This document shows positions 8,519-59,129 of a DNA stretch of 64,000 nucleotides, in pieces (position 1 is the stretch's first letter; each line of letters begins with the position of its first letter). Origin of the DNA: Berberis thunbergii (Eukaryota > Streptophyta > Magnoliopsida > Ranunculales > Berberidaceae); NCBI GenBank assembly GCA_003290165.1, contig QNQO01000684.1, positions 434,001 to 498,000 on the forward strand. The letters are read 5' to 3'. The position numbers and the translations under genes are program-made. The notes under the pieces were generated by a model. That model was not told the origin of the DNA and made no database searches. It was given only the letters and a program-made list of their open reading frames with translations.

Positions 8519-10510
8519 TCAGCCAACAGATGTTTCCCTTCTGTGGTGGAAGCTTGTTCTCCTCAGAATCTCCCCAAATCTTCGGTACAATGCTTTCTTC
8601 TTTCTCTGGGAGCTTTTCTCACTCTCTGATTCATCAAGATGATTGCCATCATGATCATGCTCGTGCTCATGGTCAAATTCTTCCATGTTTAACGCGTCTC
8701 CATATTCTGTGAATGAGGAAGACATTTTGCGGTGGTGCGTAACTGGTTTTGGACCATCTGGTGAATCCAACACATCAAATATTGACCCTTTGAAAAGCTC
8801 TGCCAATTCAGGGTCGTCAAAATCATCATCCTTATGATCCTTGTGAAATCCATTTGGAAGTTTCAGTTCCTCCAGTTTGAGATGGAGAATTTCTGTTAGT
8901 TTTCTATCATCTTTGTGCTCTTTAATTTGTGAATCTTGTTTTGGTACATGTTCCACATTTGCATCCTCCTCCGTTTTCTTGGTAACATCTGGTGTTGGCG
9001 GTCGTGAGCTTGTGTTCAGTAACCTCTTCAACTCCTTGATAGTTTCAAAAGATGCTGCTTCGTTGATCCTAAGGCGCTCATTCTCTCGGGTTAGATTCTG
9101 TATCATATCATCCTTATCAACTGTGCAATCCTTGAGTTGGGAATTCTCTTCCCTCGCAATCCCTGCAGCTTCCTTCGCAACAGTAGCTTCATTTATTGCT
9201 TGTTTCAGTATATCCCTCAACTTGCAGTTTTCTTCCCTTATGACCTTAGCCATGTCCTCTGCTATCTTCAATGACTCCGCCAACTTGTGGTTCTCTTGTT
9301 TTACAGCACTGCCCTCCTCTTCGGCTCTTCTTATGCAATTGACAAACTCGAGTTCTTTTCCATTCCATGCCAAAATTGCATCTTCAGCTTCGATTTTCAA
9401 TCTGTCTGACGCACACTTAAGCCTCTCAATTTCCTTTCTTGCTTCCTCCAACTGAGGTTGATACCTCTCCTCGGCTGTCTTTGCCAATTGCTTCCAATAT
9501 TGTACTTCCTCCTTTACATTGCTTAGATTAGATTGGGCTAACCGAAGTTTGTCCTGCGCATCAGTGCTTTCCGTTTTGACTTCTATAAGGACTAATGCTA
9601 GATCATCCATGGCTTTCCTGCTCTTTTCTTCTGCATCGGTAGCCAGTTTAAGTTCTGTTTTAAGTGCAATAATCTCCTGGCTTAGACAGCTCACTGTAGA
9701 CGAACCTGCTTGTGCACGTGCTATTTCCTCTTTGGCTATTTGAAGCTCAGCTTTGAGAGTCTGAATGGTTCCTTTCATCGTATCCTTCTCATCTTGCAAC
9801 ATGGATACATTGATATTAGAACTGCTATGTCTTTGCTCAACTGGATGCTCATCCTCCACGCTCTGTATTTTCTTTTGTAGAGAACTTATCTCAGACTTGG
9901 CTTGTAGGAGCAAGAGATTGGTCTCTTCAAGTTGTTTCGTATTGGAACGCAGCGTCTCAGACAACTCTGTCTCAGACTCCTTTGCCTTATACAATTCCAC
10001 CTCAAGTTTTTCAACTCTTGTTTTGCTTTCCGAGAACGAACGCCTAATCTGGGACTCCGATTCCTTCACAACACGGAGCTCCTCCTTCAAGCCGTCTAAC
10101 GAATTAGCATCCTTTTCTGCTTCCTCTACCCCTTCACTAATCCTTTTCGAAACTTGGGATGATTGAAGCTCCTTCAAAGATTGGAGCTCTACATAGAGAT
10201 CTCTAACCCTCTTTGAATTGGCCTCAGCTTCTTTGACAGCTACTTTTTTCGATTCTAAGGCAGACACTAGTTGCTGACGAACGCGTTGCAGCTCTTGGGA
10301 AGACACAGCAAGAGCCTCCACATCTATTGCGTGTTGCTTCTGAACAGCCTCGATTTCAAGCTGCCATGCTCGGTCTTTTGTTGCTCCGACCTTCATCATC
10401 TCTTCAATCTCATCATCCTCATCCATTACTGCTGTCAATTTGGCTCTGGCTTTGTTTATATCCACCGGCTTCCTTCCTTGCATCGTTCTTGATCTTACAA
10501 CTTCTTGTTT
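8519..10510 (-). CDS. WEB-family coiled-coil protein, main exon
   Basis: From the methionine at 10483 the frame gives 654 residues. The frame stays open to 10510, where TGTAG forms a likely acceptor, so the true exon probably begins there with KQEVVRSRT. The segment DRAWQLEIEAVQKQHAIDVE followed by SSQELQRVRQQL closely resembles the core of Arabidopsis WEB-family proteins such as At3g02930 and At5g16730. A long heptad-rich coiled coil spans roughly residues 40-480. It is followed by a Pro/Thr-rich linker (SSRPPTPDV), an acidic patch with DDPELAELFKGSIFDVL, a His/Glu/Asp-rich tract, and a basic tail KKKALYRRFGEILRR that fits the family's C-terminal lysine-rich end. WEB1 and its relatives act in chloroplast movement, but the role of this subgroup is not established. 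The product is shorter than 800-residue relatives because N-terminal exons are missing or broken. Confidence 0.85.
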   Translation of the reverse strand, partial: KQEVVRSRTMQGRKPVDINKARAKLTAVMDEDDEIEEMMKVGATKDRAWQLEIEAVQKQHAIDVEALAVSSQELQRVRQQLVSALESKKVAVKEAEANSKRVRDLYVELQSLKELQSSQVSKRISEGVEEAEKDANSLDGLKEELRVVKESESQIRRSFSESKTRVEKLEVELYKAKESETELSETLRSNTKQLEETNLLLLQAKSEISSLQKKIQSVEDEHPVEQRHSSSNINVSMLQDEKDTMKGTIQTLKAELQIAKEEIARAQAGSSTVSCLSQEIIALKTELKLATDAEEKSRKAMDDLALVLIEVKTESTDAQDKLRLAQSNLSNVKEEVQYWKQLAKTAEERYQPQLEEARKEIERLKCASDRLKIEAEDAILAWNGKELEFVNCIRRAEEEGSAVKQENHKLAESLKIAEDMAKVIREENCKLRDILKQAINEATVAKEAAGIAREENSQLKDCTVDKDDMIQNLTRENERLRINEAASFETIKELKRLLNTSSRPPTPDVTKKTEEDANVEHVPKQDSQIKEHKDDRKLTEILHLKLEELKLPNGFHKDHKDDDFDDPELAELFKGSIFDVLDSPDGPKPVTHHRKMSSSFTEYGDALNMEEFDHEHEHDHDGNHLDESESEKSSQRKKKALYRRFGEILRRTSFHHRRETSVG

Positions 10511-12950: not shown

Positions 12951-13518
12951 TGATTATATATCAAAATAGACCGATCGTCGTGTCATACACATGGCAGAGA
13001 ACATCCATCGCGAGGGATATGGCGTCCCATCTACTGGGTCAGTTCGTAAAACCCAAGAAGAACGAAGCCAACCATAGAGGCCCAGACAATGCCCACTATA
13101 AGAAGATATAATCAAAGGCTGATCCAGGCCCGAACGAATCAAAGCCCAAATATAGGCCTTGACACGAGTTCTATCATAAAGAAGATGAACGTTGTACCAA
13201 AAATAAGTCGTGGAAGGAGTTACACCTCCACGGACGCATCTCCATCAAGGAGGAGACTGTTACGAGAAACATCTCCTTTCGTTGCACCTCACATGTTTAA
13301 GTCACATAGAGAATTAACCGCGATCATTATAAAAAGTAAATGGAACATTTGACACAAGTATGCAACTTTAACTGAGTTTTGTCCAGATTTACTTCTTTTT
13401 TCAAACAGAGTTGTTGACTTAAGCATCAGAGTGCCTTCGGCCACCAAAAAGTTGGTTACTGACAGTCTAACATCTTTTGCAAATCAAACTCACAAGATGA
13501 CGATTTTTGGACGCATCA
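12951..13518 (+). repeat. 5' LTR of element A
   Basis: It begins TGATTATATATCA and ends GGACGCATCA directly before the primer site. A TATA box (TATAAAAA, about 13328) lies ~190 bases from the end. The U5-like segment GACTTAAGCATCAGAGTGCC at about 13414 matches a motif in both LTRs of element B (GACTTAAGCATTAAAGTGCC on the minus strand there). The left boundary is placed by analogy with element B and is uncertain. Confidence 0.7.
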
Positions 13519-13520
13519 GT

Positions 13521-13540
13521 TTGGCGTCGTCCGTGAGGAA
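13521..13540 (+). promoter_or_regulatory. Primer binding site, tRNA-Asp-like
   Basis: TTGGCGTCGTCCGTGAGG follows the LTR end CATCA by two bases. It resembles TGGCGCCGT, the first bases of the tRNA-Asp complementary site used by many plant gypsy elements, with one transition in the core and a diverged 3' half. Confidence 0.7.
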
Positions 13541-13625
13541 CAGCAAGTTTCCTTTCTAAAAAGATGAAACACAGTGGCGTAGTTCACCAAAATCTGATAA
13601 ATGATCGACAAGTTGTCATGAACAA

Positions 13626-15048
13626 ATGACACACCCTATAGATCCTCAACCCGATGAGGATAATAATAACTTTTCTATCGACGACAATGTATCACAAGCA
13701 GCTCTCAAACAAGATGCAACCCAAATAATCGGGCCAATGGCATCCGATAATCAAGAACTACGACATGCAATAGCCCAGACAACTCAGACATCCGGTGATG
13801 TTGCCAAGAACCCTCAGCTAGACCTGCTTATTGTCCAGATGAATTACATGACGAAGATGCTAGAGAAAATCACTCAGGAGCGCATCTAACCAGCTAATCA
13901 TGTCTAGACACCGCCCCAGCAAAACTTCGCCAACCAAACTCAAGGGAGTGACGAAGTTTCAGCAAAACCCCAACAAGGAAACTTCGAGAGCAATGAACTC
14001 CTCTAAGGAAAGACTCCACAATGTGACGAAACGCTTGCTGAAATTCCATTCATAATCGGAGTCACGGATCCCAACGTATTGTAAGGATTAGCTAAGCCGC
14101 CATTCTCTGACACCCTCATGAAAACACCCATGCCGAAAAAATTCACTCCGCCAAAGTTCGAAGTATACGATGGTATCACTGACTCAACAGATCACTTGAG
14201 ACACTTCCACCACATGATGGCCCTGAAGAAAACCACAATGTCGATCTTATGTAGAACATTTTCGACCAGCCTCACATCCTCAGCGATGAATTGGTTCAAC
14301 AGCCTACCACCGAGGTTAATAGGCTTTTTCCAGGTGTTACCCACCGCTTTTATCACCAGATTCATCGGAAGCCAACGGATGAGGAAATGACCACACTACC
14401 TCCTTCATATCAAGCAAAAGCCCGAAGAGACAATAAGAAAATATGTCACTCGTTTCACCAACGAACTGACGGTGATCGATGGATGCACCGATGACACAGC
14501 CTCTGCAACCTTCATTGCCGAACTGAAGAGAGGTCCCTTTTTTATGCTCAGAACCTGAAACCTCCAAAATGCATGGGATAAGGGATGAAAACAGCCCGAA
14601 AACACATTTCTCTCGAGGAGATGAAAGCAGCCAGGAGGAAAAGTAACCAATAAAGAGCAAGTCATTCGAGGAAACGAGAAAGAAATGAAGAAAGAAGATG
14701 GGATCAGGGATTACGATAGGATAGCATCAATTTGAAGAGGCATCAGAATGGCGGAAGAAACCGATTCAAACCAACAAAAGTTTGAGAAGTTGCAGTCAGC
14801 ACAACCTCGACACGAACGAGTAACAAGCGTGATGAAGAAGACATACAAACCATATACAACCTTGAAAATAAGTCGAGCCAATATACTGAAGCACATAGCA
14901 AAATGGGATAACATCAATTGGCCACTCGGGATGAGAAGAGACTCGGAAGGAAGAGACAAAAGAAAATATTGTTCCTTCCATAAGGATCATGGGCACGATA
15001 CTAAAGACTGGTACAAAGGAAACAAAACATTCAACCCAACAGATTAAG
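13626..15048 (+). pseudogene. Gag remnant of element A
   Basis: Frames broken by shifts and stops encode parts of a gypsy Gag. The segment MPKKFTPPKFEVYDGITDS, with TDHLRHFHHMMALKK and AMNWFNSLPPRLIGFF, is the conserved capsid core. Next frame: IKQKPEETIRKYVTRFTNEL, matching the usual end of the Gag core. Near 14960-15010 KYCSFHKDHGHDTKDW resembles the C-F-H-x-GHDT-x-C zinc-binding segment, with its final Cys replaced by Trp. The N-terminal frame at 13626-13889 (QLDLLIVQMNYMTKMLEKIT) is the variable leader. Gag would package element RNA into cytoplasmic particles; this copy cannot make the full protein. Confidence 0.85.
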
Positions 15049-15281
15049 CAGCCAAAAATACCTCCCACTCGAGATGATTTATATCAAAACATGAGTACTA
15101 ACGAAACCAGACAAACCATTTTACCAGTTCATAGAACATGGAGAAGTTTGCACCAATCAATTAACACGATTCAAGGACCCTACCGACGGATGCAAGCTCG
15201 ACCCGAATCACCAGCGACAAAATTGACAGCAACGAACTCTATTGAACCTCAGCAGCTGACACAAAACACAAAGCTAACATA

Positions 15282-15420
15282 AGCATGATTGGACAATTTG
15301 GTGCAGATGTGAGCATGATTGGACAATTTGATGCTGATGTGAGCACGATTGGAAATTTGATGTTGACGTGAACATGATTGGACAGTTCGGCGTTGATGTC
15401 AGCATGATCGGATAAATCAA
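15282..15420 (+). repeat. 30-bp tandem repeat in element A
   Basis: Units like AGCATGATTGGACAATTTGA plus GCTGATGTG follow one another about 4.6 times at a 30-base period, one unit having lost a base. It lies shortly after the gag zinc-knuckle-like segment. Confidence 0.85.
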
Positions 15421-15549
15421 CACTGCTCAGCCATGAGATCAAAAAATAGCCCGAGTCTGTTAGCTACGACAACATATACAGCGAACGAGTAAGGCACAAC
15501 CCATAGCATATACTGCGAAGAAAGGCGTATGGGACAAATGAACAAAAAC

Positions 15550-15667
15550 ATCAGTCTTTAATATGAGGATCGACATCAATCAAGCAAATGAAGACAAAAC
15601 AACAAAACATCAATCTTTAATACGAAGATCGATATCAACCAAGCAAAGGAAGACAAAGCAAATCGTT
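15550..15667 (+). repeat. 59-bp tandem duplication in element A
   Basis: Two adjacent copies begin ATCARTCTTTAATAYGARGA and run through GACATCAATCAAGCAAATGA to a polyadenine-rich end. They differ at about ten positions. This lies between the 30-bp and 70-bp arrays. Confidence 0.75.
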
Positions 15668-15880
15668 CTTCAACCCAGCATAAATGCTTCAAAAGTTAGG
15701 GCTGGTCAGAGCATTCGAAAGGAAATATCAATAAAATTACAAATTTGGAATCCCCATTTTATGCAAGGAAGACAAGATAAATGCGTCGAAAATTAGCCAT
15801 ACAAAGCAATCGGCATACCTAGCCATAAGAAATTAGGACAAAAGTCAGATATATAATAAAAACATCTAGTCTAATCAACC

Positions 15881-16670
15881 ACGAATTAAAAGTTGGACAA
15901 ACAAGTCAACTTAACACATAAAACTTTGAATCGACATAGATGTTGGGTCAACGAAGTAAAAGTTGGACAAACGAGTCAACTTAACACAGTAAACTTCGAG
16001 TCGATTGAGACGTCGAGGCAACGAAGTAAAAGTTGGACGAACAAGTCAACTTAACACAGAAAGATTCGAGTCGGCTGAGATGTCGAGCCAACGAAGTAAA
16101 AGTTGGACAAACGAGTCAACTTAAGACAGTAAACTTAGAGTAGACTGAGACGTCGAACCAACGAAGTAAAAGTTCGACGAACAAGTCAACTTTACACAGT
16201 AAACTTCGAGTCAACTAAGACGTCGAACCAACGAAGTAAAAATTGGACGAACAAGTCAACTTATCACATTAAACTTCGAGTCGATTGAGACGTCGAGCCA
16301 ACAAAGTAAAAGTTAGACGAACAAGTCAACTTAATACAAAAAACTTCGAGTCGTTTGAGTCGTCGAGCAAACGAAGTAAAAGTTTGATGAACAAGTCAAC
16401 TTAATACAAAAAACTTTGAGTTGATTGAGACGTCAAGCCAACGAAGTAAAAGTTGGACAATTGAATCAACTTAACAAAGCAAATTTCGAGTGAACTGAGA
16501 CGTCGAACAAACAAAGTAAAAATTGGACGAACAAGTCAACTTAATACATGAAACTTTGAGTCGACTAATACGTCGAGTTAACGAAGTAAAAGTTGAACAA
16601 ACGAGCCAACATAACACAAAAAACTTTGAATCAGCCTATACGTCGAATTAACAAAGTCATATTAAAGGAA
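15881..16670 (+). repeat. 70-bp satellite-like array in element A
   Basis: The word ACGAAGTAAAAGTTGGAC recurs at 15951, 16021, 16091, 16161, 16231, 16301, 16371, 16441, 16511 and 16581 with a period of exactly 70. A degenerate unit starts near 16651 and another precedes 15951, giving about 11 copies. Each unit also carries CAAGTCAACTTAACACA and GAGTCGATTGAGACGTCGAG. No unit boundary is disturbed by indels, so length is better conserved than sequence. It occupies the place where pol would be expected. Confidence 0.95.
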
Positions 16671-16941
16671 CAAATTGACATGATTCAAGGAACTACGGAT
16701 CGACCGAACCAACAAGGCAAAGGTCGAGACCAAAAGTCAACTTTTTCGCCAAACTCCAACGCATCAAGAAGGACAAAGTCGGCCCATCCCTAGACAATTA
16801 ATGAGCTAAAATGCGAAAGTAGCCATAAACGAATTCAAAGTAAAGCCCAATACAAAAAAATGAGCAAGCAACACACAACGAGTCGACAAGATAAACTACA
16901 AAAATATGCAATACCAAGAAACGTTATTTTCATTAACAACA

Positions 16942-18858
16942 CTATTCTATTACATCTGGAGAAGAAGATGAAGGAGTAGGAAAAGAAATGGAGGCAACCA
17001 CAAGATCATCAGCTATATCATCTACGGGAAAAGGCAAAGGTCTCTTTTCAGAAGGGGGAGGAAGCAATGGTTCTTCTACCACTGGGGTGCTCGAAGGGTG
17101 AGGAAGCAATGACTCTTCAACCACTGGAGCAACTTCTTCACCGTCATCGTTTTCGAAAGCATGATCAACCAAGTGGAGGTACCCGGATAAATTTGCACCG
17201 AGCCCATTGATATAGTCAAGAAGTTCAACCCGTCCATCAACAACTCGCTTCCATTCTTCGACTTCGACAATGTGGAGCCTGTCCTTAGCAGTGGCGAGTT
17301 TATTTTTTGCCGCGATAAGCCGTCCCTCGGAGGTGGTAAGCATAATAGAAGTATATGCTTTGCTCTCGTCGAGCGCATCCATCAACTGTTCCACCCTCCT
17401 TTCAGCAATATCGCGAATAACGGATTGTTCAATCTCAGCACAAGAAGCCTCATCGTAAGCTGCCTTCTCAGCAGACAACTCCTTCTCAACATAACATAAA
17501 CAGACACAAACCCCATCCAACTTAGCTTTCAATGACTCAAGCACAACAACAGATTTATCCCACATACTTTCCGCTTCAATCAACAAAGTCTGAGCAGCCC
17601 TGGCAGTTTTCTCTGACTCTGCACATTGCGTTCTCAACACGTCGAATTGGGAAATAACGTGAGAAAACACTAGCAACAATGTTGCCAACCTTCTCTACAA
17701 AGAAACCACCTGATCACGATCATCTCGATAGACCGAGCCCATCCCCCTTGCATAAGCGAGATGATTCATCTTATCCATTATCTGCTCAAGACCATAATCA
17801 AGGTGATCACATGGTTCCAGTACGGGCATCGAAGGTATTTCCTCTAATCACATGTGTCTTCATTTATCAACCAGCGGGCACCATCTTGCAAGTCAAGCTG
17901 AGTGAACCAATAAAACTTGCCATCCGACTTGATACAAATATCTTTTGGGATAGGCTCAATCCAGCCAACTCGTGGATGAAGAACACGAGGATCCGAAAGC
18001 ACCGAGGAACCACCCCCAACAACCGAAAGGGCAAAAGGAACAACAGTGACAACAAAAAAATTGATTTTACCCTCCCGACGATGAGCAACCATAGTAGGAA
18101 CATGATTAGTAGTGGCAGCGGGAGCAAGAGAATACAGACGACAGGAAATGAAACTAAGAATTCAGGCGCATCACTGACGTCAATAGAAGGATAAGGAGGA
18201 GAGTAAACTTTGAAACTTTGACCACCACCAACAACTTCTTTAGAGTGTTCCACTGCCAACTGAAGCATTTTATCATCAATAACCTAGGGATCATTATTAG
18301 GCACTTCAACAACGTTTGAAACACCATAGGCAGAAAGAAGCCTTTTTTCATTATCATCCAATGGATGAGTAGTCTCTTTTTTGTTCTTATCCAACACCAA
18401 CCCCATCTCCTCAGCCTCTCAAGAGATATGCGATCATCTTTTATGACATCTTCGCAGGAAGGACTTGGACGAGAGGTAGCTTCCATGACATCCTGACTAG
18501 GACTCGGATGAGATGCAGTCTGAGCAGAACCATGAGTAGAAAGTCGTCTCTTCATCGAAATGCCAAATAGAATAGCCCTCAAGTAAGAAAAAACCATTAC
18601 TCACCAACCATTAGGACCCATTTGAGCGGGAGCATTGCCTAAGAAGTCCATATACTCCCAAAATAGCTCTAAAACTAGAAACCGAAGGCCAAAAGAAAAC
18701 ATGCACGGATACATCGCGGTGTACCCAGACCTTGGATGAAAAGAAATGTCGTTCTGTCTATGCAAGATACTCTCGAGGTTGGGCGGCAGATTGTAGTCAG
18801 AACAAAGGTTATCCAACGTCGCCTGAGAAGCTTTCTTGAGTGAAAAAATGAGCCTCAC
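16942..18858 (-). pseudogene. Antisense ORF of element A (gypsy-type transposon protein)
   Basis: The gene runs against the element. Its N-terminal part (18858-18601) reads LDNLCSDYNLPPNLESIL, then PCMFSFGLRFLVLELFWEYM and NAPAQMGPNGW. This resembles the plant 'putative gypsy type transposon' domain (Transposase_28 in Pfam, as I recall). The middle (18600-17690) is broken into several frames with a Pro/Ser-rich character. The C-terminal part (17688-16942, 248 residues) is open and forms a coiled coil, ending in acidic and proline-rich stretches (EEVAPVVEESLLPHPSS) and the terminal SSSSPDVIE. Element B has a recognisable homologue in the same relative place. The function is unknown. This copy is disabled by several frameshifts and has no clear start. 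Confidence 0.75.
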
Positions 18859-18880
18859 AAATAGCTAGCAGATTACAACT

Positions 18881-31690: not shown

Positions 31691-32044
31691 TAAATAAAAT
31701 TTTCAAACTTTGACCGAGCTTAGTAACGCGAGCTTGTAACTCGAGTGAGGGTATTAAAGAGTTTGGACATTAGCTTGGGCTAATGGGTTGGATTTGTGGT
31801 GCTATCTACTGGCTTGCCCGATCCAATTGGAGAGTTGTGCCCTGTGGGTTGAGTGAAGGCTTAGACTACATGGCTCCTAGAGTGGAGGACACTGTGCTAG
31901 GCAGGTTTCACAGCGCAGTGATTACCTCCCTCTCTCTACAGTGCATGGATTACGAGTCGGTGCTCTATCGATCCAGTTTGCCCACTAGCCCAGACACCAA
32001 ATGAAAAACTCTTTAAAAAAAGGAATAAACGCATTTTAAGCCAA
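31691..32044. other. Short spacer between SINEs
   Basis: No gene recognised. A 73-codon frame at 31783-32004 has no similarity I know. The segment around 31790-31990 with an A-rich end could itself be retroposon tail sequence. Confidence 0.35.
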
Positions 32045-32316: not shown

Positions 32317-32435
32317 GGATGCGATCATACCAGCGCTAATGCACTGGATGCCATCATAACTCCGCAATTAAGCGTGCATGAGCGAGAGTAGTACTAGGAT
32401 GGGTGATGTCCTGGAAAGTCTTCATGTTGCACCCC
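32317..32435 (+). pseudogene. 5S rRNA pseudogene, full length
   Basis: GGATGCGATCATACCAGCGC at the start, TAATGCACTGGATGCCATCA, AACTCCGCAATTAAGCGTGC, GAGAGTAGTACTAGGATGGG and GTTGCACCCC at the end follow the plant 5S rRNA over its whole ~119 bases. About ten substitutions and a missing G in the CTGGGAAG segment mark it as non-functional. The internal control region words (AAGCGTGC, AGTAGTACTAGGATGGG) are still present. There is no 5S array around it; it stands alone between two copies of SINE family 2, which suggests a retroposed or recombined copy. Confidence 0.88.
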
Positions 32436-51634: not shown

Positions 51635-52759
51635 ATTAGTTTATAGGCATATATTACTTTAGCCTCAAAGTTTAGCCTTATATCATTATAACTTCCAAAA
51701 TGGATGGAAACTATCAAGTCATGGACATTGACTGGTCCAGACCAATTTGAAGACAAAAATACCATTTGCCTTCTCTTTCTTTTTATTTGCACTTTTGATC
51801 CATTTGTTTATAGGTATATATCACTTGACCCCCAAAGTTTAGCCTAATATTAGTTTAACCCCCAAATTTAACTGAAATCGTTCAATCGTGAACATTGATT
51901 GGTCATGACCAATTTGAAGACAAAAATACCTTATACCCTTTATGCTCTATCTCCTTGCAAATAAACTCCACAACTTCCCAAATTCATCTCTGGAAACAAT
52001 CTCATCTCCATCTCGGTGGTGGTTGAAAATGGAGGTTGGAGTGTGGCTATAAGTTGTGGTGGTTGTTGGGTTGAGACGGTGGTTGGCGGTGGTCTCTAGC
52101 ATAAATCAGATAGAAAAAATGACAATTAAGGGGTGATGATAATGGCTAAAAGGTAATGATGGGTCAGGGAGAGTGATTGCTGGCGGAGGTGATGATGGGT
52201 AGAGATTGTCAAAGGGATCGAATATGGATGATGGTAGGAAGTTCAGGGGAAATTAACTAATGCGGGTTGATGTTGTAGGTAAAGGTGATAATAGTGGTGG
52301 TGACAAAGGGAGGTTGAGGGTTGGGTTTTACAGTGAATAGAAAGGGGAAATGAAGATGGAGAAGTTGTTGTTTTAGTTTATAAGAAGATGCGACTTTCTA
52401 TTTTTTAGTTTAAAAAAATTAAATTAAAATCAATAGATCTCTTAGAAAATACGAGATTTTAGATATTTAGGTAGTGTATGAGGGCTCCCACGTGCCTTAT
52501 GCCAACCGTTCATATGAAAGCATTTTCATCCTCGATCGGACGGTTTCATTCAAATTTGGGAGCTAAATTGATACTAGGCTAAACTTGGGGGGGGGGGGGG
52601 GGGGGCAAAGTGAAATTGAGAGGAAAGAAATGGAGGAACATGTTTTCGTCTTCAAATTGGTCTTGACCAGTTAATGTCCACGACTTGATGGTTTTCCATC
52701 CATTTTGGGACTTAGACTGATATTAGGCTAAACTTTGGTGACCAAAGTGATATACCTAC
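51635..52759. mobile_element. Long inverted-repeat (foldback) element
   Basis: The left arm (about 51635-51945) and the right arm (about 52480-52759) are inverted copies. CCAAAATGGATGGAAACTAT and GACCAATTTGAAGACAAAAA on the left match the reverse of CATCCATTTTGG and TTTTCGTCTTCAAATTGGTC on the right. Each arm itself contains two tandem versions of the CAAAGTTTAGCCTAATAT motif. The centre is GGTGGT-rich without a real frame. A run of about 20 G lies at 52588-52605. The right arm recurs at 60480-60670. No transposase was found. Confidence 0.6.
52755..52759 (+). repeat. Left target duplication of element B (CCTAC)
   Basis: CCTAC here and at 59125-59129 flank element B. The paralogous empty site near 60664 has one TCTAT-like copy between GATATA and AAACCAATGG. 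Confidence 0.8.
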
Positions 52760-53427
52760 TGATGTAGTCGAATTTTGTTCTCCTTGACCTTGACTTGCAC
52801 AGGGAACACACATGAGCCAATGACCACCATTGTAGCGCCGATGACACTCCGATGCTTAAGTCAGACAAGGCTTGAAAGGCGTAATGTTGTAAATTGGGTT
52901 TTGTAGCGTCCATTTGTTCATCAACCCTCTGTCCTATTTATAATGCGAGAGTCCTTGTTGGGATAGGCCTTTTGTGGCATAGTTTAGGGAAATATATCTT
53001 GTTGGGGATCATTTCCCTGTTGGGAGTCGTCCATGTAAGAGAGTTTTCCTACACGACTTGTGCTCTTAAATCTGAGGGGATTATTCCCTTGTGGAGTGTT
53101 GTCCATGCAGGAGAGTTTTTATGCACGACTTATACTCCAGTATTTGTTTCCTAGTCGGAATCAATGTATTGTTGGCCTACATGTCCTAGGTCGATCCCCA
53201 GATACTTGCCGTATTAGGTCTTACAGAGTATTGGGATTGACCATGTGATGTATGTGCTTAACAGGGCGCTGCAATTGGGGTCCAACCTCTTGGACCTTGC
53301 CAAAATAGGCTTAGTATTTTCTGGACTTTGCCAGATTGGGCGGTCAATTAGGCCTGCTTTGCTCTGTTGACGAGATTATCGCGACACGTGTACTGAGCGG
53401 ATTAATGGACGGTATGGTGTATCATGA
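52760..53427 (-). repeat. 3' LTR of element B
   Basis: Matches 58469-59124 over its length, including AATATATCTTG, TTGGGAGTCGTCCATG and CATGCACGACTTATACT. The TATA-like TTATAAATAG (minus) lies at 52934-52945. On the minus strand the preceding TTCGAGGGGAGTAGC is a candidate polypurine tract. Confidence 0.88.
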
Positions 53428-53571
53428 GCTACTCCCCTCGAATTAGTGGACCAGCCCGTCAGCATACAAAGTCATGAAGGAACCGGGCGGTCATGATGAT
53501 TGAGTTTGAATCATCTCCTCAAGAGGTGCGCATTGGGCGTGTGACTCCTTAGAAAAAGCCAGGAATTATGT

Positions 53572-53707
53572 TTTCTATATAAATCTCCTTCTCTGTAGAG
53601 TTTAGTTCCTTTAATCTCTCGATCTGAGAGACTCTGTTTTGTTGTTTCGCTTCTAGCGTTTTTGACTTTGTTCAACTTCCGTAATAAAATATTTGTACGT
53701 TCTTCTA
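53572..53707 (+). promoter_or_regulatory. Candidate promoter and leader of the antisense gene
   Basis: TATATAAAT at 53576-53584 is followed by a CT-rich leader (CTCCTTCTCTG, ATCTCTCGATCTGAGAGACT) and then ATGGCAGG at 53708. This is a normal plant core-promoter layout on the strand opposite to the retroelement. Confidence 0.5.
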
Positions 53708-56265
53708 TGGCAGGCCAAAATCAGCTTTATGATAAATTGTTCGCTAAAGGTCGTAAGTTTTTTTAGGAGAGTTTGATCTCTGAGTTGAATTTGGAAGGCC
53801 TTTGCGAGAAGTATGGGATCCCTGATGATCTGGTATTTTTTCACATTGGGTGCTGGTCAGAAGCCATTATCTCATCCAAAAAGATTTATTTGTTTGTATC
53901 GAGGTATGCTTCAATCAGGCATCCATTTTCCCGTGAACAAAGAAATTTGGAGCTTCATGGTGTACCTTGATGTTCCACCCGCTCAGCTGGTGCCAAACGG
54001 GTACAGGATGAAGATCGTCATTCTGATTAGGGCGAAGGACACTAGTGTTCGAGTGTTTCTGAGGGTGATCCAACTGCTCACTTCACGAATAAATGAGCAT
54101 GTTATGTGCATGTTGACGTCGCTGACTTATTTTGGAAAGTTGCCCGATGCTTTCAAGTTCTGGCAGAAGTATTGCTTCATGGCTTCTGCGGACTCAAAGT
54201 ATTTTGAACTTGATGGTTGTCCGATTGAGCGGGAGTTCAAGCAACTAAGTAAGTTTGATTATGTTTTCGATCCTGCTAGTGTTGATTGCATATTGAATTG
54301 TTATCCGTGCTTTATTTAGGGAACTTTCCAACTATGCCCCTTTCTTTTGAGGATGAAGCAACCATGGATAAATTTCGTGAGATGCCTCAGATGCGGGTGG
54401 AAGATGTCGTCCAACCTTCTAATATCAAACGCAACGGATTATGGGCTTACTAGCACGAGGCTCGCACTCTTTTTAGAGTTTCAAAACCGAAATCTGAAGG
54501 CGAACCCTTTTCAAAGAAGAGGAAACTCCCAAAGGTTAAGATTTTGCGCCCGTCAAGGAAAGTGGAGTTGAATGAGGCACTTTCTTGTTTTGAGTGTTCA
54601 AAGAAGCCCCGTGTTGCGATTAAGCCTACTCCTGAGTGTTCAGCCTCTTCAGAGGGAGGACACAAAGTTGTGGGGAAAGATCTTAATTCTCCGCTGGGGC
54701 GAAAGTTATTGTGTCTAACGGGCATGGTGTTTGGGAAAATGCCCCATATTTCCCTTCCTTACTTAGAGAAGGCATATCCGCAAATGGTGGGGGTTGAAGA
54801 TGAAACAAAGCTGAGCATTGAGCAAGCAAAGGTTATGAACAACATGTTGTTGTAGGCGGGTTTGGAAACTTCGTCTGTTGCTGGTCAGAATTCATCCTTT
54901 TTCGTTGGAAGATTTCGAGTACAACCCTCATTGGATCGCGAGTCTTCTCAGCTTGCTGAAGAGTTCGCCTGACTATCGTTCTTATGGAGAAAAGTCTCTT
55001 CCACGTCATTTGTACTATCCTCCGTTCCGATCTCGACCAAACATTGAAGTGATGATGGGTCTGAGACATAACTCGCTTCCTTCTTCCCCATCAATTGTTT
55101 CTGAATTGGCTCATGAGTGAAAGTCGATCGTTATGAGTAAGAAGAAATTGGTGGAGGAGGGCCCTGATGCGGTGCTAGAGTGATTCTGGTCCTAGAAGAC
55201 CCCCATCCGGATGCGCGGATTAGTCTATTCACCCCAGATGTGGTAAAGATGAGCAACCAAGCCTGGCACTAGGAGGTTGATATTTCTTATGCCTCTAGGA
55301 AGCATATTAGTAAATGGAATGACTAGCTCGCGAATTATGTTCCAAAACCAGAAGGCAATACGTTGGGAAAGCGTATGGACAAGGGGTAGAAATATCTCGT
55401 GCTAGGGATGTCATATTTGAACCAAGTTGTCGTCGCTGGGATGAAAGTTGAGGCCGCTTGTGAGAGAGTGTATACCATGGAATGAGTATTTTCCCGTACT
55501 CTGATGCTCTTCACAAAATTGTATCATTGAAGAAGTGGCTTGAAGAATGGAGGTTTGCCCAATCGGCTGTTGATTTGGAAGCCTGGCAGAAAAGATTGGA
55601 GGCTTAGAGGGTTCACTTGGAAACGCTCGAGTCTGATTTGGCAGAAGCACTGTCCGCAAGGGACAGGTCTGAAAAAGAACTGAACCTTGTCTATTGTGAC
55701 TTACAATTTGCTCGGGAGACTGCAGCTAAGGCGCAGGCTGATGTAGGCTCAGATTGCAGAGAAGTCTAAGAAGGAGTTCGAGTGGATTGTCTGATCTCAA
55801 CAATTAGAGGCTGATGTTCACTTCAATGCCAAGAGTGTGAGGACAATAGAAGAACAACTTCTTCTGGCATAAAATGAACTTAGTACGGTCAAGGACAACT
55901 TGAGTACCGAGCAATCCAAAACTGATGCGCTGTCAGGTAAACTGGAGCAGCTGAAGCTAGAGCTCACTGAATCAAGAGTATGCAAGGAGAAACTCCTTAA
56001 GGCCTAGGGCACGTTTGAGTTCAGCAGAGTTGTGCAAGGAAGACTGAAGCTCTTGCAGCTGATAAAGAAAGAGCATGCTGATTGGGACATCTCTTACTAC
56101 AGGGAGGTATCTTTTGCAGAGTTTGGAGAAACCTCGAATTAATCAGAAGAAAAAGGTGACCCAAATCAGGGTGACCGAGCGGCAATGAGTGTGGACGTGT
56201 CCCCTGCTCTTTCTTCTACCATGTCAGGCTCCACTATATCTAAACCTCCTCCTGACGACGAGTAA
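53708..56265 (+). pseudogene. Antisense ORF of element B (gypsy-type transposon protein)
   Basis: It starts MAGQNQLYDKLFAKGRKFF and then meets TAG. The next codons read LISELNLEGLCEKYGIPDDL, and after a frame change GMLQSGIHFPVNKEIWSFMV and PPAQLVPNGYRMKIVILI. This is the 'putative gypsy type transposon' N-terminal domain, parallel to that of element A (LDNLCSDYNLPPNL, NAPAQMGPNGW). A middle part (54320-54855) carries KKRKLPKV and SKKPRVAIKPTPE, basic linkers. From about 55410 a coiled coil (LKKWLEEWRFAQSAVDLEAW, LESDLAEALSARDRSEKELN) leads to a tail ending ISKPPPDDE and TAA at 56263. Several stops and frame changes make it non-functional. The role of this protein family is not known. Confidence 0.8.
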
Positions 56266-56689
56266 ACTCTATATTTTTCAGATTCTTAATGAAAGATGAT
56301 ATGTTAAAGGAACACTTTGTATTTGTGTATTCCTGCTAGCTATTTTTTTGCTTTGTCTTATCTTGGTATTAGCCTTTAGACAATAGATTTTGCTAAGTCA
56401 AGAAATCGTAGGGTTGATTGCTGACGAGAGTTCTAAGCGTTTATGTTGCTAAGCAATCCCGTTATGTACTCTTTAGAGATCGAGAAGTTATCTCAGCCAA
56501 GTCTTGTGAGTTGGCTTAACTTCTTGCGAGGGGATAGTCTTGGTGGGTGATAAATTCAGACCAAGTCATAATCTGCCCTTATAATTCACCATTGTTATCT
56601 GTCTTTGGAGGACCACACTAAAGATCAGACCCACAATTGTCATTGCTTGTATAAGTGATCTGGCCAGACTATGGTAAAACGTGTTCATC
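56266..56689. other. 3' flank of antisense ORF in element B
   Basis: The 400 bases after the antisense stop have no frame of note and grade into the tandem array. Confidence 0.5.
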
Positions 56690-57590
56690 GCTGTAAGTGG
56701 TCGGGTAGTAATCATTGTGAGTTGTCCGAGTTAGCTTTCTTTGCTCTGACTGAACTTTCAAACCATTTTTGTTCGCCTCTAGTGGACTAGATTTAAGGTC
56801 GGACCAAGAGTTATCGCCATTAGTCGTAACTGACTAAACTTAGGTCAAGTCTGGCGACCATTTTATGTGGTTGGGCAATGATCCTTGGCGAGTCATCGTT
56901 ATCAGGAGTTGAGAGCACTGGCTAGATTCCCATTTTTTAAGCTATTTTCATCCGCGCTCGGCGGACTAAGGTCTTAGAGCGGACAAGAAGTTATAGCCAT
57001 CAGTCATCACTGACTAAAATTTGGTCGGGTTCGGTGATCATTGTCTATAATTGGACAATGATATATGGCAAGTCATCGTGATCAGGCGTTGTGAGCGCTG
57101 ACTAGAGTCCCACTTTCTAAGCTATCTTCATCCGCGCTCGGCGAACTACGGTCTTAGAGCGGACCAAAAGCTATCGTCATCAGTCCAAACTGACTAAGCT
57201 TTGATCGAGTTCGGTGACCATTAATGATCCCTGGAAAGTCATCATGACCAGGCGTTGACTAGACTCTCACTTTCTAAGCCATCTTTATCCGCGTTCGGCA
57301 AACTATGGTCTTAAAAGGGACCAGAAGCTATCGCCATCAGTCAAAATTGACTAAGTTTTGATTGGGTTCATCGACCATTATCAGTAGTTGGACAATGATC
57401 CCTGGCAAGTCATCATGATCAGGCATTGAGAACGCTGACTAGACTCCCGCTTTCTAAGCCATCTTCATCCTCGCTCGGTGAACTATGGCCTTAGAGTGGA
57501 CTAGAATCTATCATCATTGGTCGAAACTGACTAAGCTTTTATCGGGTTTGGCTGATGACTAAGCTATTGTCATCATTCGAAACTAACCAA
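56690..57590 (-). repeat. ~180-bp satellite-like array in element B
   Basis: CATCCGCGCTCGGCG-like words recur at about 56949, 57129, 57286 and 57466, with a weaker one near 56769. Spacings are 180, 180, 157 and 180. Each unit also has TAGAGCGGACCARAAGCTAT, CATCAGTCRAAACTGACTAA and TGGACAATGATCCCTGGCAA. The 157-base unit has a deletion of the GAACGCTG region. The array begins directly where gag breaks off, with the last unit running into the gag sequence. Confidence 0.9.
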
Positions 57591-58258
57591 GTTTTGAAGC
57601 GTGTAACGTACTCCCTCAATATCTCGTTCGGCTTCTATTTGAGGGTGAGCAGATAATGCGAGCCCTTTCTGATTCGTTGACTGCTGACAAAACAGGTGAG
57701 AAATGTTTTGGCTAGCATCCGGAATGAGTCAATGGACTTCTAAGAGAGGTTGTCGAACTAGGTCAGCGCTAACTTTTTCAGGCTGGTAGGGAATGACCAG
57801 TACATTACTGCTTTCGATCCTTCTTTGAACGCGATTACATGCTGGAAGTGGCTTAAGTGGTCTAACGGGTCTGTTGTCCAGTCATAAAATTCCAGCTTTG
57901 GCGAGATGAATTTCTTCGGTAGTGGCTTGTTCATGATGTAATCTATAAACGGGAGGACAGAGAGTTTGAACAACACGTTTGGATTGTTGGCCCAAAGCCA
58001 AAGGGGGTTCTGCGAGGCGAGTTTGTTGGCCCTAGACGTTGGGTCTTTGTTGGGCGCTCCTCCTTCTCCAGTCTACTGAGAGCCGATAGGGCCAAAGTGG
58101 CTCTCATGAACGTGTTTTCTAGTGTCTTCTAGAGACGAGGCTTTACACGTCTCCATCTCTTTTTCTGTGGATGGAAGGTTCTGTTGAGTAAGTATTTCCA
58201 CCACTCGTGCGATTTGTTGCACCTGGGTTGATCGTAGATCCACCCTAGGGTCCGTCAT
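57585..58258 (-). pseudogene. Gag remnant of element B
   Basis: On the minus strand MTDPRVDLRSTQVQQIARVV begins at 58258. A later frame from 57976 reads LPKKFISPKLEFYDWTTDPL then DHLSHFQHVIAFKEG, the capsid core. Further on, with several stops, come IDSFRMLAKTFLTCFVSSQR and KPNEILREYVTRF, the usual end of the Gag core. Gag ends there: no zinc knuckle and no protease follow, because the 180-bp array begins. The same core occurs in element A. Confidence 0.85.
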
Positions 58259-58446
58259 GGCTGCTGCCAGTGCGGGGGTCCGAGGTTATTGCCCCGCGGT
58301 GCCGGTGTCGCTGGAATTGGTGGCGCTCCGCCGATTCGAGCTTTCGAGGGCTTTGTGATGTCTCCATTATTGTGAGATCTCGTGGTCACCATTTTTGTAG
58401 ACTGTAATGAATGGTGATATCACTGTTTTTTTAAGGAACTTCATCA

Positions 58447-58466
58447 TTCCCAATGGACGGGGCCAA
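58447..58466 (-). promoter_or_regulatory. Primer binding site of element B
   Basis: On the minus strand TTGGCCCCGTCCATTGGGAA follows the LTR end CTACATCA by two bases. It is a changed tRNA-Asp-like site, in the same position as TTGGCGTCGTCCGTGAGG of element A. Confidence 0.7.
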
Positions 58467-58468
58467 GC

Positions 58469-59124
58469 TGATGTAGTTGAAACATGTTCTCATTTACCTT
58501 GACCTGCATAAAAAACACACGTGAGCCAAAGACCACCGTTGTGGAGGTTGATGGCACTTTAATGCTTAAGTCAGATAAGGTTTGAGAAAGGCGTAATGTT
58601 GTAAATTGGGTTATGTAGTGTCCCTTTGTTCTATTTATAATGCAAGAGTCCTTGTTCGACTAGGCATTTGGTGTCGTAGTTTAGGGAAATATATCTTGCT
58701 GGAGATCCTTTCCCTGTTGGGAGTCGTCCATGTAGGAGAGTTTCCCTACATGATTTGTGCTCCTAGATTTGCGGGGATTATTCCCTTGTGGAGTGTTGTC
58801 CATGCAGGGGAGTTTTCATGCACGACTTATACTTCGGTATTTGTTTTCTAGTCAGAATCAATGTATTGCTGGTCTGCCTATCCCAGGTCGATCCCCCAGA
58901 TACTAGCCTTATTAGGTCTTACGGGTATTGGGCTTAATCATGTGACGTATGGGCTTAATAAGAAGCTGCAATTTGGGTCCAACCTCTTGGACCTTGCCAA
59001 AATTGGCTTAGTGTTGTCTGGGCTTTGCTAGATTGGGCGGGCAACCAGACCTGCTTTGCTTTGTTGACGAGATTACCAGGACACATGTACAACTTGAATT
59101 AATGGACGGTTTGGTATATCACCA
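58469..59124 (-). repeat. 5' LTR of element B
   Basis: On the minus strand it starts TGGTGATATACC and ends CAACTACATCA. It carries TTATAAATAG (TATA box, 58631-58642) and further on GACTTAAGCATTAAAGTGCC, shared with element A's LTR. Confidence 0.88.
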
Positions 59125-59129
59125 CCTAC
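59125..59129 (+). repeat. Right target duplication of element B (CCTAC)
   Basis: CCTAC immediately after the LTR end ATATCACCA. The following AAACCAATGGGG continues the host sequence that is uninterrupted at 60670. Confidence 0.8.

What the first reader, a model, noticed from the sequence alone, without database searches (positions are those of the whole stretch)
52760..59124. Complete retroelement in which an opposite-strand gene and a satellite array replace pol
Seen: LTRs, CCTAC target duplications, primer site and gag on the minus strand, then a ~180-bp tandem array, then a long plus-strand reading frame with its own TATA and leader beside the 3' LTR. Known: Tat-lineage plant gypsy elements can carry extra, sometimes antisense, frames and tandem repeats near the 3' end. 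Inference: this is a pol-less derivative whose spread depends on a partner, and which keeps a cis-encoded antisense gene.
Basis: partly seen in the sequence, partly recalled or inferred. Interest (0 to 1): 0.75.

Follow-up and report, generated by a model that had tools for sequence, protein, structure and literature searches.

The report
Old pol-less plant retrotransposon with antisense gene
This is a decayed, non-self-sufficient copy of a known kind of plant jumping gene (Retand-like); the tandem repeats and the backwards gene are normal parts of that kind, and what makes it odd is that it seems to come from a branch that lost its copying enzymes and then lost still more in a deletion of its own.

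Summary
The anatomy is real: LTRs 52760-53427 and 58469-59124 (87% identical), CCTAC duplications, gag on the minus strand, a ~180-bp array, and an antisense gene region on the plus strand beside the 3' LTR. But the antisense 'long frame' is a pseudogene (longest open stretch 176 codons), and gag is a fragment with 4 stops.

Pol-bearing relatives in the host genome with similar LTRs carry the array and/or an antisense gene too, downstream of pol. So these parts do not replace pol; they are the remains of a Retand-type 3' end. A pol-less subfamily exists: 4 fetched insertions keep gag and protease sequence, then share a ~1.5-kb noncoding block where RT-integrase should be. The window copy's 3' half matches that subfamily, not the pol-bearing kin examined. 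Its own gag-to-array junction (4-bp microhomology) is private: 0 of 38 other scored places span it; only the window and its allele do.

So: a fossil, probably of a non-autonomous Retand-like subfamily, with a further one-off deletion. Antisense TRP28 genes and arrays are published Retand features. New here is mainly the RT-to-INT-replaced subfamily with its own version of the antisense gene, a kind that the published RT-based survey could not see. No firm sign of selection on that gene within the subfamily.

The parts
52755..52759 (.). target-site duplication CCTAC, left
52760..53427 (-). 3' LTR (element reads on the minus strand)
   Evidence: 86.7% identical to the 5' LTR; inner end set by eye against the other LTR
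53428..53440 (-). purine tract (PPT-like) next to the 3' LTR
   Evidence: sequence shown; by eye
53576..53584 (+). TATATAAAT, possible antisense promoter box, 131 bp before the ATG at 53707
   Evidence: 6 such words in the window, so weak
53707..56265 (+). antisense gene region, pseudogene: TRP28-like N-terminal part, coiled-coil-like C-terminal part (by eye); many stops and frame changes
56266..56799 (.). non-coding spacer; 56267-56690 has DNA matches in pol-less L018, L025, L030 and none in pol-bearing L011, L022, L028
56800..57593 (.). tandem array, ~180-bp unit, about 4 units of decreasing identity, one short 157-bp unit
   Evidence: matching array in pol-bearing L011 and L028
57594..57597 (-). 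private gag/array deletion junction, TCAA microhomology
57597..58258 (-). gag, N-terminal part only, 4 TAG stops
58447..58468 (-). PBS-like site next to the 5' LTR
   Evidence: sequence, by eye; primer tRNA not identified
58469..59124 (-). 5' LTR with TATAAATA on the minus strand at 58639
59125..59129 (.). target-site duplication CCTAC, right

Best explanation
A fossil of a non-autonomous Ty3/gypsy element of the Tat clade, Retand-like. Shown: LTR ends, target duplication, gag fragment, array and antisense pseudogene; pol-bearing relatives with similar LTRs in the same genome; a pol-less subfamily in which RT-RNase H-integrase is replaced by a shared ~1.5-kb noncoding block; a gag/array junction found only in this insertion and its allele among the places scored. 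Inferred: the sense RNA was made from the 5' LTR on the minus strand and copied and integrated by a pol-bearing relative's enzymes; the window copy descends from the pol-less subfamily (its spacer and antisense gene are of that type) and then lost the rest of gag, protease, block and part of the array in one microhomology deletion (template switch during reverse transcription, or later DNA deletion; not separable here). The antisense gene presumably acted, while alive, as in other Retand elements; its role is unknown in the literature.
For: LTRs/TSD. Gag PF03732. No pol domain in 6 frames. Pol-bearing kin: L022 with RVT_1, RT_RNaseH, RVT_3, Integrase_H2C2 above cut-off and rve below it; L011 by tblastn with pieces from L022 and L028 that include those domains; L028 with rve above cut-off, RVT_3 and H2C2 below; L038 with RT and RNase H pieces, integrase outside the stretch held. 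In L022 the second RNase H lies between RH and INT, the Ogre/Retand order of PMC6317226. Pol-less subfamily: L014/L031, L018, L025, L026/L030 share gag, protease end and block; the block query has 40 scored places of 7167 candidates, 30 of them over at least 1400 of 1494 bases, 77-81% identical apart from L025 and its allele. Link to this subfamily: spacer and antisense gene align as DNA (69-79%) with L025 and L030, spacer with L018; pol-bearing L011 and L022 match it only as protein (42-45%) plus 42 bases in L022, L028 not at all. Private junction. LTR tree mixing pol-bearing and pol-less copies, mostly unresolved.
Against: No intermediate before the private deletion was found; descent from the pol-less subfamily is inferred from the 3' half alone, and gag and LTR trees do not resolve it. 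L043, with a pol-type 3' half, still has a 67% DNA match of about 260 bases to the window's antisense gene, so the two 3' types are not wholly unlike. The window antisense pieces give no Pfam hit; only L022's gives PF04195, below cut-off. Two of the four block-bearing copies (L018/L029, L014/L031) show no window-type antisense gene in the stretch held. L014 has an RT match on the opposite strand inside a 6-kb insert between its gag parts, taken as a nested element. Partner use was not observed.
Confidence: 0.83

Rival explanations
1. The window copy is a direct one-step deletion derivative of a pol-bearing element, unrelated to the pol-less subfamily.
For: The junction is private; pol-bearing kin have similar LTRs and gag, and L011 and L028 the array.
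Against: Spacer and antisense gene match pol-less copies as DNA and the pol-bearing L011, L022 and L028 hardly or not at all (only 3 pol-bearing copies examined over that part).
Confidence: 0.13
2. A non-autonomous form that spread as such, with gag, array and antisense gene but nothing between gag and array.
For: Intact ends and target duplications.
Against: Of 40 scored places for a junction-spanning query only the window and its allele cross the junction; the other 38 stop at or within 13 bases of it (3536 first-look candidates, only the best 40 scored).
Confidence: 0.04
3. The plus-strand frame is a host gene inserted by chance.
For: Its own TATA-like box.
Against: 40 scored places of 6684 candidates, 38 of them other than the window and its allele, 77-82% identical over most or all of the query; on the antisense strand beside the 3' LTR in L023 and L025; a different family in the window has a homologous antisense piece.
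Confidence: 0.01
4. The antisense region acts mainly as an antisense RNA (source of double-stranded RNA) and not through a protein. (A question of function, compatible with the best explanation of what the element is.)
For: Discussed for aORFs in PMC7264820; frames are broken here and within-subfamily codon-position bias is weak.
Against: Between lineages differences gather at third codon positions (64/42/83 against L022, 39/27/55 for the longer piece of L011), as for a protein kept by selection.
Confidence: 0.1

Closest known systems
Retand lineage (Ty3/gypsy, Tat clade), e.g. Silene Retand, rice RIRE2, maize Grande (PMC11963269, PMC7264820, PMC6317226)
   Same: Antisense ORF of TRP28 type between pol and 3' LTR, tandem array in that region, LTRs near 650 bp, 5-bp target duplication; in pol-bearing L022 a second RNase H between RH and INT.
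   Different: This copy and its subfamily have no RT, RNase H or integrase. In the 63 clusters of PMC11963269 ten are defective, lacking GAG, AP or RH/INT; that survey mined by intact RT domains, so RT-less lines could not appear. Array unit ~180 bp; the survey gives 8-100 bp.
TR-GAG elements (terminal repeats with only a gag gene)
   Same: LTRs, PBS/PPT-like sites, gag, no pol, presumed dependence on a partner.
   Different: The subfamily keeps protease sequence, a noncoding block, an array and (in some copies) an antisense gene; gag is broken here. TR-GAG definition recalled; only search listings seen.
RIRE2 / Dasheng pair of rice
   Same: Autonomous and non-autonomous partners with matching LTRs within one Retand-type family (recalled).
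   Different: Dasheng is recalled as non-coding inside; here gag-protease and antisense sequence remain. Only a listing was seen.
Ogre/Tat elements with 3' tandem arrays as satellite source (PMC7004042, passages)
   Same: Tandem array downstream of gag-pol, before the 3' LTR.
   Different: Whether this array also spread as a satellite was not tested.

Membership tests
Retand lineage | RT falls in the Retand clade | not tested
   No RT in the window copy; RT of pol-bearing kin was not put on a reference tree.
Retand lineage | second RNase H (aRH) between RH and INT (Ogre/Retand order) | tested here: met
   In kin L022: RVT_1, RT_RNaseH, RVT_3, Integrase_H2C2, rve in that order (rve below cut-off; criterion). 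Met for that relative, not testable in the window copy; does not part Retand from Ogre.
Retand lineage | antisense ORF with TRP28 (PF04195) between pol and 3' LTR | tested here: inconclusive
   Kin L022 216-aa antisense ORF has PF04195 as its only hit, E 0.067, 13.9 bits against a cut-off of 26.2; window pieces no hit; window, L022, L025 and others align over this part.
Retand lineage | tandem array in the region between pol and 3' LTR (about half of clusters) | tested here: met
   also in pol-bearing L011, L028
Retand lineage | LTR-flanked with target duplication of 4 or 5 bp | tested here: met
   (CCTAC; L010/L011 TCTAC; none recognised for L028 and L022)
TR-GAG | LTRs and gag present, pol absent | tested here: met
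TR-GAG | intact gag ORF | tested here: not met
   gag truncated, 4 stops
TR-GAG | no other coding region | tested here: not met
   antisense gene region, broken
LARD (large derivative without coding sequence) | no coding remnants inside | tested here: not met
   gag and antisense gene remnants

The most novel reading that the evidence does not exclude
The pol-less subfamily is a long-lived parasite lineage of a Retand family that gave up RT to integrase but evolved its own version of the antisense TRP28 gene (42-47% protein identity to that of the pol-bearing L022 and L011), so that the antisense protein, not pol, is the part a parasite cannot borrow; it would act in cis or only on its own kind.
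Probability: 0.12. Interest if true: 0.6.

Novelty: new variant of a known kind. Interest (0 to 1): 0.3.

Why it matters
The role of the antisense TRP28 gene, present in 97% of the recently active Retand clusters of PMC11963269, is unknown. A family that split into pol-bearing and pol-less lines, apparently each with its own version of that gene, gives a natural contrast for asking whether the protein must be encoded by the element it serves. It also shows that a survey that starts from intact RT misses such lines. As to the window copy itself, it is an ordinary fossil.

Tried and rejected
Protein search for the antisense region (P0001 residues 31-206: 167 candidates, none at E 0.001) and gag (55 candidates, none) gave nothing; viral contigs neither (3 stretches matched a pattern, none confirmed). 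Rfam: 2 hits, both away from the element; no tRNA gene. AlphaFold of the TRP28-like domain (L022 first, 9 rows): mean pLDDT 40.6, too poor for a fold search. The 1.5-kb block was considered a captured gene: no codon-position bias in 6 windows, no Pfam hit to it in the sense frames of L018, L025 and L026 (antisense frames of the block not scanned except, by mistake, those of L025, also without hit), so rejected for now. Purifying selection within the pol-less subfamily: Nei-Gojobori dN/dS of 0.19-0.36 for the tblastn-matched pieces of L025, L030 and L023 looked promising, but those pieces were chosen by protein similarity and transitions dominate; over the whole gene codon positions differ little (p 0.65, 0.004, 0.13 for L025, L030, L023) and transversions not at all (p 0.88, 0.99, 0.85), so I do not claim it. 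The same count on gag: p 0.013 for L014, 0.00005 for L022, 0.057-0.90 for the other six. Gag and LTR trees to separate pol-bearing from pol-less copies: unresolved. One search scanned the wrong strand of L025; one search repeated it on the right one. The genome-wide count of pol (query L011:2001-3900) was asked 14 times and never answered.
Full report
OBSERVATION. The ends at 52760 and 59124 are right. The element reads on the minus strand: 5' LTR 58469-59124, 3' LTR 52760-53427, 86.7% identical over 645 sites, 60 transitions to 26 transversions, K2P 0.149, CCTAC on both sides. With a recalled plant rate of 1.3e-8 per site and year that is near 6 million years; slower rates make it older. Gag is an N-terminal part with PF03732 and four stops, all TAG. 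The array follows gag directly. The plus-strand region 53707-56265 is open only in pieces; the frame of the longest piece has 34 stops. No RT, RNase H or integrase was found in six frames by Pfam, nor by tblastn with pol pieces of two relatives.

WHAT THE ANTISENSE REGION IS. Its 176-codon piece matches the antisense strand of a second element of another family in the same window (18574-18738; E 3.9e-5; local score 78 against a shuffled mean of 26.8, maximum 48, 0 of 2000 reaching it). Relatives in the genome carry it in the same place and direction (L023, L025, L030; at protein level L011 and L022). In pol-bearing L022 a 216-aa antisense ORF has Transposase_28 (PF04195) as its only Pfam hit, E 0.067, below cut-off. 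The conserved G, P, P-N spacing given for TRP28 in PMC11963269 fits the window piece by eye. The C-terminal part reads as a coiled coil by eye. TRP28 is therefore likely, not proven.

RELATIVES. The host assembly is 2.24 Gb in 11,732 contigs and holds alleles as separate contigs. The LTR query gave 42 matches from 40 scored of 13,862 candidates, on 36 contigs with the window's own. Stretches were fetched around 17 of the 35 others. Setting aside the window's allele C8751 and collapsing four pairs that are 99.6-99.8% identical over the stretches compared leaves 12 other insertions. Typed as pol-bearing: 3 (C6397 = L010/L011; C20/C4999 = L028/L032, RT not found; C94 = L038, RT and RNase H seen, integrase outside the stretch). 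Typed as pol-less with the shared block: 4 (C786, C65, C5476/C62, C126/C6110). Not typed: 5 (C7004/C255, cut gag with a caulimovirid-like frame downstream; C155; C970's LTR at L022 242-900, whose element has a window-type antisense gene but another element's gag upstream; C857, gag only; C175, pol-type 3' half only). The LTR places on the other 18 contigs were not fetched. C970 also holds L022, a pol-bearing, more distant relative (LTRs 74-77% to the query).

THE POL-LESS SUBFAMILY. After the protease end, L018, L025, L026 and L014/L031 share a block of about 1.5 kb, pairwise 77-84% identical, without codon-position bias; in L026 and L031 it is followed by sequence matching the last part of pol just before the array. 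In pol-bearing L011 the same interval holds RT, RNase H and integrase. In L014/L031 the gap between protease end and block is a few hundred bases, and pol pieces match neither L029, L030 nor L031; L014 has an RT match on the opposite strand, but inside a 6-kb insert within gag. The block query gave 40 scored places of 7167 candidates. Comparing the 38-40 places each by script, gag lies upstream of the block at 5 places (C203, C2442, C40, C55, C6689) and a window-type antisense gene downstream of it at 4 (C46, C5308, C639, C762; C46 and C5308 have the same spacing and may be alleles), all in the same sense and order. The lists are capped, so these are lower bounds.

THE WINDOW COPY. Spacer and antisense gene match L025 and L030 as DNA (69-79%), the spacer also L018; pol-bearing L011 and L022 match only at protein level (42-45%) apart from 42 bases in L022, L028 not at all. 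Against a clean split, L043, with a pol-type 3' half, has one 67% DNA match of about 260 bases. So its 3' half is nearest the pol-less type. Its gag runs straight into the array at TCAA, shared by gag kin and array units. A 331-base query across this point matched end to end only the window and its allele C8751; of the other 38 scored places 34 begin at query base 165, two at 168 and two at 152, so at most 13 bases beyond the point (3536 candidates, best 40 scored). The deletion is therefore private to this insertion as far as scored, and older than the split of the two alleles. The allele also lacks about 70 bp in the antisense region.

HOW IT WORKED. LTR and gag trees are mostly unresolved and do not separate pol-bearing from pol-less copies. 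LTR pairs of pol-bearing L010/L011 (K2P 0.168), L028 (0.189) and L022 (0.154) are about as diverged as the window's (0.149). That fits joint spread, pol-less copies using a partner's enzymes through similar LTRs. This is inference. Nothing here shows what the antisense protein does. Between lineages its differences gather at third positions; within the pol-less subfamily such bias is weak and absent for transversions, so most change there looks like decay after insertion.

LITERATURE. PMC11963269 (abstract, mining method, Results and Discussion read): 2,735 young Retand copies in 122 clusters found from intact RT domains, 97% of clusters with antisense TRP28 ORFs, about half with arrays; ten of 63 clusters defective. 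PMC7264820 (abstract to origin, function and transcription sections read): antisense ORFs in Grande, RIRE2, Retand, PvRetro13; antisense promoter reported for Grande. PMC6317226 (passages and one section): aRH position, TRP28 in 23% of Retand. PMC7004042 (passages): arrays after gag-pol in Ogre/Tat elements. I saw no report of a Retand subfamily with RT to INT replaced by a shared block while gag-protease and the antisense gene stay; the searches were made, of which, apart from the four papers named, only listings were seen.

VERDICT. Observation partly confirmed, interpretation partly supported, kind known; the pol-replaced subfamily is a new variant. On checking I lowered the best explanation from 0.85 to 0.83 and raised its first rival by 0.01, because of the L043 match.

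Noticed in passing
window 13500-18870: A second Tat/Retand-like element, another family, on the plus strand: PBS-like site near 13520 (by eye), gag (PF03732, E 7.5e-12) with a knuckle-like YCSFH..GH motif, 30-, 59- and 70-bp arrays, antisense frames incl. a 250-codon coiled-coil-like stretch (16945-17694) and a TRP28-like piece; no RT/RH/INT by Pfam in 13501-18400 and no 3' LTR found by direct repeats. So two pol-less elements of different families in one window.
   Followed up: partly
L012 1831-2535 and 3003-3590 (minus strand): Caulimovirid-like frame (DUF7746 E 1.6e-27; Caulimovirus coat domain E 0.021, below cut-off; DUF7588 in the second) beside a cut copy of this family: a likely endogenous pararetrovirus piece.
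   Followed up: partly
L025 3607-5200, L018 4364-5830, L026 3161-4670, L031 1-1530: The ~1.5-kb block that stands where RT-integrase should be: noncoding by codon-position test, origin unknown.
   Followed up: partly
window 31713-32015 and 32317-32435: Plant SRP RNA (198 bits) and a 5S rRNA match (67 bits) 300 bp apart.
   Followed up: no
window 8522-10510 (minus): 663-codon open frame resembling WEMBL (weak chloroplast movement under blue light) proteins, E 2.9e-8, 33.3 bits against a cut-off of 35.
   Followed up: no
L009 (C8751) against window 55290-55359: The other allele lacks about 70 bp in the antisense region: a small insertion or deletion since the two haplotypes parted.
   Followed up: no
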